The notes under the pieces: generated by a model
Seen by the model: the letters and a program-made list of their open reading frames with translations, nothing else
Databases searched by the model: none
What the model was told of the DNA's origin: nothing
In this document: one piece after another, positions 14,998 to 28,704 of the stretch
How the letters are laid out: the number at the start of each line of letters is the position of its first letter
Numbering within the stretch: position 1 is the first letter of the stretch
Translations under genes and position numbers: made by a program
Assembly: GCA_022844045.1 (NCBI GenBank)
Contig: JALHMM010000014.1
Location: 1-64,000, forward strand
Direction of reading: 5' to 3'
DNA length: 64,000 bases
From: Reyranellaceae bacterium
Lineage (GTDB): Bacteria; Pseudomonadota; Alphaproteobacteria; Reyranellales; Reyranellaceae

Positions 14998-15021
14998 CCC
15001 TTCGCCCCGGACTTGGTTTTA

Positions 15022-15145
15022 CCTTCCCCCGGAGGGGGAAGGTGCCCGAAGGGCGGATGGGGGATGTCGAAGACGGACACCGCGTTTGTTGAAACATCCC
15101 CCATCCGTCGCGCTTCGCGCGCCACCTTCCACCTCCGGGGGAAGG
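15022..15145. repeat. family A palindromic element, copy 2
   Basis: A 124-bp element with the same terminal CCTTCCCCC/GGGGGAAGG palindromes; the right end has one mismatch (CCTTCCACC). Inside, ATGTCGAAGACGGACAC faces a shortened CATCCCCCATCC arm. It lies between the convergent TPR and thioredoxin-fold genes and is followed directly by a family B repeat. Confidence 0.85.
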
Positions 15146-15162
15146 TATGTGCAATTCCTTAA

Positions 15163-15196: not shown

Positions 15197-16264
15197 CTAC
15201 GCCGCCGTGAAATCCGGCGGCGGGTAGTAGGGCTTGTCGCCCAGCGCCTGGACGCGTTGCCAGAAGCCTGGGCCGCTGGCCTTGCCGACTTCCTCGAGAT
15301 CGGCCGCCTGGCGCCACATGTTCCACGACTCCGGATGCAGCCGGCTGGCCTCGCTCAGATGCCGGTCGGCCTCCGCCGTGCGGCCCTGCGCGCGCAGCCA
15401 CACGCCCAGGCGGAAATGCGCGTGCGCCTGCGCGATCTCGGGCGAGTTGGCCGGCAGGCGCCGGCGCGCGGCGTCGGCGGGCAGCGCGTGCGCGCCGGTC
15501 TTCGCCCAGGCCTTGACGGCGTCGAGATAGGCGACGCGCGCGGCGTTGCGCGCTGCCTGGTCCTCGGGCGCCATGGTGCGCGTCTTCAGGTCCATGCGGC
15601 GGAAGTGATCGGTCGAGCCCGTCGTCTCCGGCGGCCGCACCATGCGGCCGGTCTCATCGATCCACACCGATTGCGGCACGTTGACCATGCCGTAGAGATC
15701 GGCGACGCGATGATCGGTGTCGATCAGGCACCAGTACTCGGCCTTGGCCGCCTCGATCCATTGCCGCGCGTGCTCCGCACCACGGCTCTCCTCGGCGATG
15801 GCGACGATCATCGCGCCGGTGTCCTTGATCTCGCTGTAGAGTTGCTGCCACACGGGCAAGTCGAACCGGCAGCCTCACCAACTGGCCCAGGTGGCGAGGA
15901 ACACCTTCCTGCCGCGCAGCGACGAGAGCGTGTGCGGCGTGCCCGCGAGGTCGGGCAGGGTGAAGTCGGGCGCGTCGAGCCCCTCCAGCGCGGCGCGACG
16001 CGCTTCCACGCCGGTGCCCAGCATCCAGACATCGCCGGCCTCGCTCGACAGCACCGGGTTGCCGAGATGGCGCCAGAAGGCCGCGAGATCGACGCGACCG
16101 TCGCGCGCCATGCCATCAGGCAACGGCACGCAGATCTCGTCGCGGCACATGCCCTCGGGCTTGAGCGTCCAACCGACGGCGCGCTCGGCGTCGGCGGCGC
16201 TGACGCCAAGACCGTCGCTTGCATCCACCTGCGCGTCGCCACGCTCGGTGAGGATTGTCGTCAT
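15197..16264 (-). CDS. thioredoxin-fold redoxin with in-frame UGA at the redox motif (candidate selenoprotein)
   Basis: Read through one UGA (15875-15877), the frame encodes 355 residues: an N-terminal domain with Cys40/Cys45 (GMCRDEICVPLP), a redoxin/TlpA-like domain from about 98 (APDFTLPDLAGTPHTL), the active-site segment FLATWASW-UGA-GCRFDLPVWQQL with position 130 as the UGA and Cys132 next, VNVPQSVWIDETGRMVRP, and a TPR-like C-terminus. Both halves share one frame and neither is a full domain alone, so this is one gene. The UGA falls where thioredoxin-fold proteins keep their first redox Cys, which favours selenocysteine. Alternatives are a Cys-to-stop nonsense mutation or a sequencing error. 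No selA/B/C/D gene is in the window. Confidence 0.72.
15844..15874 (-). promoter_or_regulatory. SECIS-like hairpin immediately 3' of the in-frame UGA
   Basis: In the mRNA the 31 bases after UGA can fold in two exclusive ways. GCUGCC (+2 to +7) pairs perfectly with GGCAGC (+26 to +31). Or UUGCC (+16 to +20) pairs with GGCAG (+26 to +30) around loop CGUGU, whose G lies 22 bases after the UGA. The second matches the usual bacterial SECIS description of a short stem with a G among the first loop bases about 16-37 bases downstream. A fold in GC-rich coding DNA can arise by chance. Confidence 0.45.
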
Positions 16265-16414
16265 GCCGGAGACCTCCTGCTTGTTCCGGCGGACGCTAGC
16301 GCGACGACCCCGACATGAAAAGGCATCCGCCTCACTTCGCCGTGAGTCGCATCGCCGCGCGCTGCTGCGTTTGCGCAGCCGGGCGACGGAGCGGCTGACC
16401 GCGTAGCGCCCAAA

Positions 16415-27897: not shown

Positions 27898-28704
27898 TCA
27901 GGCTGCCTTCAGCGTCCGCACCTTGCCCGGGCGCGCATGGTTCACGGCCCACGCCAACGCATCGTCCGCCACCCGCTCCCAGCCCGGCTCGATGCACGTC
28001 CAGTGCGAGCGGCCCGGATAGATCTTGAGCTCGGTGATGGACGGCGCCTGCTTCTGCTTCTTGAACATGGCGCGGGTCATCGAGGCCGTGGCGATGCGGT
28101 CGATGCCGCCGCCGATCAGCAGCAGCGGCGCGCGATCGGGGTTGTCCCAGCGGATCTTGCCGGCGGCCGCGACCAGGCCGTCCCAGTAGACCTTGCCGGG
28201 CGTCGGCACGATGTAGCGGTCGTAGAGCGTGTCGCGATCCTGGGGCGACACGGTCTGCGCGAAGCGGGTGCCGAAGAACTCGCGCGTCATGGTCATGGCG
28301 CGCCGCCAGCTGGCCCATGAGAGGAACACGGGGAAGGTCGACTTGATCGTGTCCCAGCCGACCAGCACGCCCGAGGTCGGCGCCGGATCGATGGCGACGC
28401 CGGCGACGCCCAGGCCCATGTCGAGGAGGTGCTGGGTGATTGTGCCGCCAAAGGAGTGGCCGATGATGATCGGCTGTTCGGGCAGGGCGCGGATGATGTC
28501 GGCGTAGTGCTTGACGATGCGCACCATGCCGACGTTCTTCAGCTCGGGATGCGGCGCGGCGCGCAGCTCGGCCGGTGAACGATCGTCGAGCGGCCACGCT
28601 GGCGCGACGACGGTGTAGCCCTTGGCCTCATAGCGGGCCTTGAAGCCTTCCCAGCTCTGCGCATTGAGCCAGGCGCCGTGAATCAGGATGATGGTCTTGG
28701 TCAT
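27898..28704 (-). CDS. alpha/beta hydrolase
   Basis: A 268-residue protein. The oxyanion region is [16 protein letters not shown], the nucleophile Ser84 (GHSFGGT), and the catalytic His lies in [13 protein letters not shown] near residue 245. [14 protein letters not shown] and [22 protein letters not shown] resemble a common small-esterase subgroup of unknown substrate. AAGGAG precedes ATG 28704; the very long frame running to 29679 is a shadow. It belongs to the five-gene minus-strand hydrolase series. Confidence 0.88.

What the first reader, a model, noticed from the sequence alone, without database searches (positions are those of the whole stretch)
15197..16264. Thioredoxin-fold gene with a single UGA exactly at the redox Cys: candidate selenoprotein
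Two same-frame open segments (15875-16264 and 15197-15859, minus strand) make one redoxin when UGA 15875-15877 is read as an amino acid. The UGA lies in WASW-UGA-GCRFDLP, where thioredoxin/TlpA-type proteins have the first redox Cys. The frame, codon style and domain order are intact on both sides: Cys40/Cys45 N-domain, redoxin core, TPR-like C-terminus. A random nonsense mutation would rarely hit the one codon (TGC to TGA) that Sec insertion would use. If real, this is a Sec130-Gly-Cys132 active site in a family I cannot match to a named selenoprotein.
Basis: partly seen in the sequence, partly recalled or inferred. Interest (0 to 1): 0.9.

Follow-up and report, generated by a model that had tools for sequence, protein, structure and literature searches.

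The report
Selenium-containing redox protein, known family
This gene, split by an apparent stop codon, almost certainly makes one thioredoxin-like protein with the rare amino acid selenocysteine in its active site; the family is already catalogued, so it is a solid but not surprising find.

Summary
One 355-residue frame (15197-16264, minus) is broken only by TGA 15875-15877, at the first redox position of WASW-U-G-C. Selenocysteine is strongly supported. The TGA sits at this site in 31 of 31 loci examined (29 from relatives, plus this gene and a second, 52% identical copy in the same genome), in 79 of 79 readable GTDB loci and in 15 of 15 more loci from a class search. Right after it lies a conserved SECIS-like hairpin (15845-15859). 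The genome has selB and tRNA-Sec. selA and selD are absent from the draft, but the selB contig ends 160 bp upstream of selB, where all three same-genus relatives carry selA. In 385 class genomes, all 22 with a long homologue have selB, against 55 overall. The claim of an unnamed family is wrong: NCBIfam NF041054.1 (ResA-like WAxxUGC motif-containing protein) matches nearly end to end (295 bits, cut-off 300), and a 2008 paper and two reviews list 'UGC-containing' selenoproteins of this type. The window's copy lies in a WASWUGCR clade that scores around that cut-off, so annotation may miss it. No full-length Cys version turned up in these searches. It is a new member of a known kind.

The parts
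15197..16264 (-). selenoprotein gene, 355 codons read through TGA, ATG to TAG
   Evidence: translation; NF041054.1 295 bits over residues 20-350
15875..15877 (-). TGA codon read as selenocysteine (residue 130)
   Evidence: TGA in 31 of 31 aligned loci, 79 of 79 readable GTDB loci, 15 of 15 class-search loci examined
15869..15871 (-). Cys132, partner of Sec130 in the U-G-C motif
   Evidence: invariant in 31 sequences; profile alignment puts U-G-gap-C against C-x-x-C of solved relatives
15845..15859 (-). SECIS-like hairpin UUGCC-CGUGU-GGCAG, nt 19-33 counted from the U of UGA
   Evidence: RNAalifold consensus; 155 of 155 and 150 of 150 cells pair; covariation weak
15845..15886 (-). codons 127-140, covered by the two best windows of synonymous conservation in the gene
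   Evidence: 31 loci, 134 conserved columns
16273..16278 (-). likely ribosome-binding site AGGAGG, 8 nt before the ATG
   Evidence: read directly
15980..16264 (-). N-terminal domain, residues 1-95, with invariant Cys40 (16145-16147) and Cys45 (16130-16132)
   Evidence: no Pfam match listed in this part
15620..15979 (-). redoxin core, residues 96-215 (AhpC-TSA/ResA-like)
   Evidence: PF00578 62.3 bits; Foldseek best hit ResA 1st9, E 7.7e-11
15245..15568 (-). C-terminal helices, residues 233-340, TPR-like in part
   Evidence: helices in the model; TPR_2 and TPR_14 below their cut-offs, TPR_2 in 10 of 31 members at E 0.01

Best explanation
The gene encodes a ResA/TlpA-fold thiol-disulphide oxidoreductase, probably cytosolic, in which UGA is decoded as selenocysteine. 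SelB with Sec-tRNA(Sec), recruited by the hairpin just after the UGA, inserts Sec (inferred from conserved parts, not shown biochemically). The Sec selenolate would attack a disulphide or peroxide substrate and form a Se-S bond with Cys132 (inference). The motif is U-x-C, one residue shorter than the usual C-x-x-C (shown by alignment). The invariant Cys40/Cys45 pair may relay electrons and the TPR-like tail may bind a partner (both inference).
For: In-frame TGA at the same codon in 31 of 31, 79 of 79 readable and 15 of 15 loci examined. 66 of 66 matches of 179 bits or more, and 26 of 26 of 230 bits or more, contain one TGA (one match in each call also has a TAG). Second in-genome copy with TGA. 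selB 466 bits, tRNA-Sec 72.3 bits and ARAGORN SeC(tca). SelB is 92% identical to that of same-genus G002 and G003, so its contig belongs here. 22 of 22 genomes with a long homologue have selB, against 55 of 385 in the same class sample (hypergeometric 3.6e-21, ignoring shared descent). Hairpin pairs in every sequence of both sets. Peak synonymous conservation at the UGA; Leu136 is TTG in 29 of 31, against 120 of 1007 Leu codons in these genes, and TTG or CTG only in 79 GTDB loci and in the broader set of 30. Confident fold, pLDDT 92.9.
Against: selA and selD not found over the NCBIfam cut-offs in the window's draft genome; one weak SelA hit passes Pfam's cut-off (26.3 against 22.8 bits) but its gene matches DgaE-type ammonia lyases better. 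Covariation for the hairpin is weak: none in the first set; in the broader set one pair changes on both sides, with 67 of 500 shuffles reaching the covariation score and 252 of 500 the pair count, and the version slid by +3 has two such pairs. In the broader set Leu136 is TTG in only 15 of 30. Folded alone, 1 of 6 sequences beats its shuffles by two standard deviations; the window does not (z 0.08) and uses another 5' arm. No SECIS family matched in Rfam. Of 60 same-family genomes with the gene, 2 lack a selB and 4 a selA match; many are drafts. No expression or mass-spectrometry data.
Confidence: 0.94

Rival explanations
1. A nonsense mutation has made a pseudogene, or two pieces of a former Cys redoxin gene.
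For: Ordinary gene calling gives two ORFs; selA is not in the assembly.
Against: Same TGA in every locus inspected and in the second copy; purifying pattern on both sides of the TGA; no full-length match without a TGA listed in 101, 398 or 385 genomes, samples that overlap.
Confidence: 0.02
2. The TGA is a sequencing or assembly error for TGC or TGG.
For: Raw reads could not be inspected.
Against: Many separately assembled genomes have the same codon.
Confidence: 0.005
3. UGA is read through but as another residue (near-cognate Trp or Cys), or the gene uses regulated termination giving a short and a long product.
For: Read-through was not measured here.
Against: Co-occurrence with selB, presence of tRNA-Sec, redox position and hairpin after the codon.
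Confidence: 0.03

Closest known systems
NCBIfam NF041054.1 WAxxUGC_long, 'ResA-like WAxxUGC motif-containing protein'
   Same: Nearly end-to-end match (residues 20-350 to profile 7-352 of 354), WAxxUGC motif, length; the second copy in the same genome scores 304.1, over the 300 cut-off.
   Different: Window copy scores 295, just below 300. It lies among the WASWUGCR (one WSSWUGCR) rows, separated by long, fully supported branches from the four WAPYUGCS rows, which score about 486 to 507 bits.
UGC-containing Prx-like selenoprotein / UGC-containing TlpA disulfide reductase family protein (literature lists)
   Same: UGC motif, pfam00578 or cd02966 (passages of PMC2398784, PMC9312934, PMC13188914).
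   Different: PMC2398784 lists 46 selenoproteins and 855 Cys homologues in its samples; no full-length Cys homologue was seen here. Their sequences were not compared, so identity with this family is likely, not shown.
ResA / TlpA / CcmG thiol-disulphide oxidoreductases
   Same: Core fold and sequence (Foldseek 1st9 E 7.7e-11, core only, query TM 0.32; profile search 3kcm 5.5e-20).
   Different: Those have C-x-x-C (recalled, and seen in the two alignments); here U-x-C, plus an extra N-terminal domain and a helical tail, and no signal peptide or anchor seen by eye.

Membership tests
Bacterial selenoproteins (SelB-decoded UGA) | in-frame UGA at a redox Cys position, conserved in homologues | tested here: met
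Bacterial selenoproteins (SelB-decoded UGA) | selB and tRNA-Sec in the genome | tested here: met
Bacterial selenoproteins (SelB-decoded UGA) | selA and selD in the genome | tested here: inconclusive
   Not found over NCBIfam cut-offs (assembly 91.87% complete). The selB contig ends 160 bp upstream of selB; same-genus G001, G002 and G003 have selA there. G003 has an oxidoreductase-SelD fusion near selA; the selD place in G001 and G002 was not established
Bacterial selenoproteins (SelB-decoded UGA) | SECIS hairpin right after the UGA | tested here: inconclusive
   5-bp hairpin pairing in all 31 and all 30 sequences, with peak synonymous conservation, but weak covariation, no gain over shuffles for the window alone, and SelB binding untested
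Bacterial selenoproteins (SelB-decoded UGA) | selenium in the purified protein | not testable with these tools
   needs mass spectrometry
NCBIfam NF041054.1 WAxxUGC_long | score over the curated cut-off of 300 bits | tested here: not met
   window copy 295 bits, 288.4 in the genome search; second copy 304.1 and relative L028 323.7 pass
NCBIfam NF041054.1 WAxxUGC_long | WAxxUGC motif and near full-length alignment | tested here: met
ResA/TlpA-like redoxin domain | AhpC-TSA / ResA fold | tested here: met
   PF00578 62.3 bits against cut-off 26
ResA/TlpA-like redoxin domain | C-x-x-C active site | tested here: not met
   U-G-C, one residue shorter

The most novel reading that the evidence does not exclude
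A redoxin family that depends on selenocysteine: the active site has lost one residue (U-x-C instead of C-x-x-C) and no Cys orthologue exists, so the chemistry may be out of reach for a Cys enzyme. It would be a cytosolic redox device with its own Cys40/Cys45 electron relay and a TPR-like partner-binding tail, fixed in a whole bacterial family, and easily missed by annotation because that clade scores at or below the NCBIfam cut-off.
Probability: 0.3. Interest if true: 0.5.

Novelty: new member of a known kind. Interest (0 to 1): 0.33.

Why it matters
It shows that an in-frame TGA spotted by eye can be a true selenoprotein, and it flags a clade likely to be cut in two by annotation: all 60 same-family relatives carry a homologue, yet only 5 of 101 genomes exceed the NCBIfam cut-off. 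(That search scores a few bits lower than a read-through protein: 288.4 against 295 and 297.5 against 304.1 for the two own copies, so some more would pass.) A family with Sec in every copy examined and no full-length Cys form found is a useful test of why some redox enzymes keep selenium.

Tried and rejected
The weak selA hit on contig C30 covers only about 45 profile positions. It is over Pfam's cut-off (26.3 against 22.8 bits) but far below TIGR00474's (31 against 267.9), and its 554-aa frame matches DgaE-type ammonia lyases best (148 bits, itself below that model's cut-off), so I do not count it as SelA. The two weak selD hits (57 and 31 bits) are ThiL (300.7 bits, cut-off 184) and PurL (1026 bits, cut-off 648). 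The alternative hairpin pairing columns 6-10 with 29-33 was set aside: 96.1% and 94.7% of cells paired against 100%, although the window alone folds that way. Rfam search of 15600-16100 gave two matches, both far below their gathering scores. Gene neighbourhoods in five relatives looked different between genera; those neighbours were judged by eye and not annotated, and gave no functional lead. The window's own neighbours were scanned. Paper searches: WAxxUGC, 0 papers; NF041054/NF041055/ResA-like, 27 papers of which 20 were listed and none of those holds either accession; Reyranella with selenoprotein, 3 papers, off topic by title; Enhydrobacter aerosaccus with selenocysteine, 0. The nearest are the UGC-containing entries (PMC2398784, PMC9312934 and PMC13188914, passages only; NF041054 does not occur in the main text of PMC13188914). 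PMC5029168 and PMC8124441 were seen as passages only. My first ORF scoring chose wrong strands and was replaced.

Full report
Observation. The window's minus strand carries one reading frame from ATG 16264 to TAG 15197-15199, interrupted only by TGA 15875-15877. Reading the TGA as U gives 355 residues with U130 in WASWUGCRFDLP. Codon-position G+C is alike on both sides, and third-position changes dominate on both sides against same-genus copies L033 and L034; with distant copies (L020, L026) the excess is small.

What the protein is. NCBIfam NF041054.1, 'ResA-like WAxxUGC motif-containing protein', matches residues 20-350 with 295 bits (cut-off 300) and E 8.5e-88; the next family has 69.7 bits. 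Pfam gives AhpC-TSA over residues 97-207 and TPR matches below their cut-offs at about 280-323; AhpC-TSA is found in 31 of 31 members and TPR_2 in 10 of 31 at E 0.01. AlphaFold2 on 31 aligned sequences gave pLDDT 92.9 and pTM 0.90, and Foldseek's best solved match is ResA, for the core only (1st9, E 7.7e-11, query TM 0.32). A profile search aligns U-G-gap-C against C-x-x-C in the two matches shown, so the motif is U-x-C, one residue short. Cys40, Cys45, Gly131 and Cys132 are invariant in 31 sequences; residue 130 was entered as C by construction. I saw no signal peptide by eye; no predictor was run. The distance of Cys40/Cys45 from residue 130 in the model was not measured.

Homologues. In 101 genomes (own plus 100 relatives), all 60 same-family relatives and one other (G088) have a strong match, G017 and some others as pieces on contig ends. 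All 66 matches of 179 bits or more contain one TGA; one of them (G035) also has a TAG. I checked the exact codon in 31 loci, counting the window gene and its second copy: 31 of 31 have it; the other 35 of the 66 were not checked codon by codon. Of these 79 could be read and 79 have TGA. Being the best 80, they lean towards close relatives, and more distant Cys forms among the rest cannot be excluded. In 385 class genomes, 24 match at 1e-18; 22 have long or full-length matches (26 matches of 230 bits or more, all with a TGA, one, in G736, also with a TAG), and two (G532, G637) match only the redoxin core without a stop. I examined 15 of the new loci and all show WxxxUGC. In 398 phylum genomes only G000 and G005 match at 1e-30. 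These samples overlap. The window genome has a second copy on contig C16 with TGA, 52% identical.

Selenium machinery. selB is on C85 (466.3 bits; 467.4) and tRNA-Sec is on the same contig (72.3 bits; ARAGORN SeC tca). SelB is 92% identical to the copies of same-genus G002 and G003 and 52-53% to two others compared, so C85 is not foreign. No selA or selD is over its NCBIfam cut-off in this assembly of 144 contigs, 91.87% complete with 5.79% contamination; the weak hits are a DgaE-like enzyme, ThiL and PurL. C85 is 28,723 bases long and selB begins at 28,563 on the minus strand. In same-genus G001, G002 and G003 selA directly precedes selB by about 190 to 240 bases. In G003 a pyridine-nucleotide oxidoreductase-SelD fusion lies on the other side of selA; it passes the selD cut-off (267.1 against 125) and scores 451.8, below the cut-off of 700, with a model named 'fusion_not_SelD'. 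Loss at the contig end therefore explains selA well and selD plausibly. Among the 60 same-family relatives, 56 have a selA match at 1e-40 (G058's is partial and below cut-off) and 58 a selB match at 1e-60. In the 385-genome class sample, 22 of 22 genomes with a long homologue have selB, against 55 of 385 overall.

Hairpin. Nucleotides 19-33, counted from the U of UGA, pair as UUGCC-CGUGU-GGCAG. All cells pair in 31 sequences and in a broader set of 30. The evidence is conservation more than covariation: no pair changes on both sides in the first set; one does in the second, 67 of 500 shuffles reach its covariation score, and the version slid by +3 has two such pairs. The 18 bases GACTTGCCCGTGTGGCAG are identical in 73 of 79 GTDB loci. 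Among 31 loci, the windows of strongest synonymous conservation begin at codons 127 and 128, at the UGA. Leu136 is TTG in 29 of 31 there, but 15 TTG and 15 CTG in the broader set. Folded alone, the window strand uses another 5' arm and does no better than shuffles; of six sequences only L020 does clearly better.

Phylogeny. A tree of 41 rows separates a WAPYUGCS clade (4 rows) from the 37 WASW/WSSW rows with full support; the window copy groups with same-genus copies and the C16 copy with proteins of other families. Long branches (L020, L038) make some places unsure, and the root is at the midpoint only.

Organism. Many of the closest GTDB loci are labelled Reyranella or Enhydrobacter aerosaccus, so I take it for a member of that alphaproteobacterial group (inference).

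Judgement. The selenoprotein reading is very likely right and the family is already known, so novelty is limited to a divergent clade at the edge of the model's cut-off and the lack of any full-length Cys form in what I searched.

Noticed in passing
15009-15158: Inverted-repeat element just downstream of the gene (arms of 36 nt, 83% complementary); its core CCTTCCCCCGGAGG occurs 9 times in the window at up to 2 mismatches against 0.7 expected, 8 of the 9 as facing pairs about 110 bases apart: a REP- or MITE-like repeat.
   Followed up: partly
L155:5413-7635 minus (G003): Same-genus relative carries a pyridine-nucleotide oxidoreductase-SelD fusion protein (741 aa) near selA.
   Followed up: partly
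L020 (G000 C16:72301-73233): Second WAxxUGC selenoprotein gene of the same genome, 52% identical, over the NCBIfam cut-off when read through (304.1 bits).
   Followed up: yes
G035:C18:36956-37960 and G736:C22:17876-18886: Two copies have a TAG besides the TGA; possibly decayed or misassembled.
   Followed up: no
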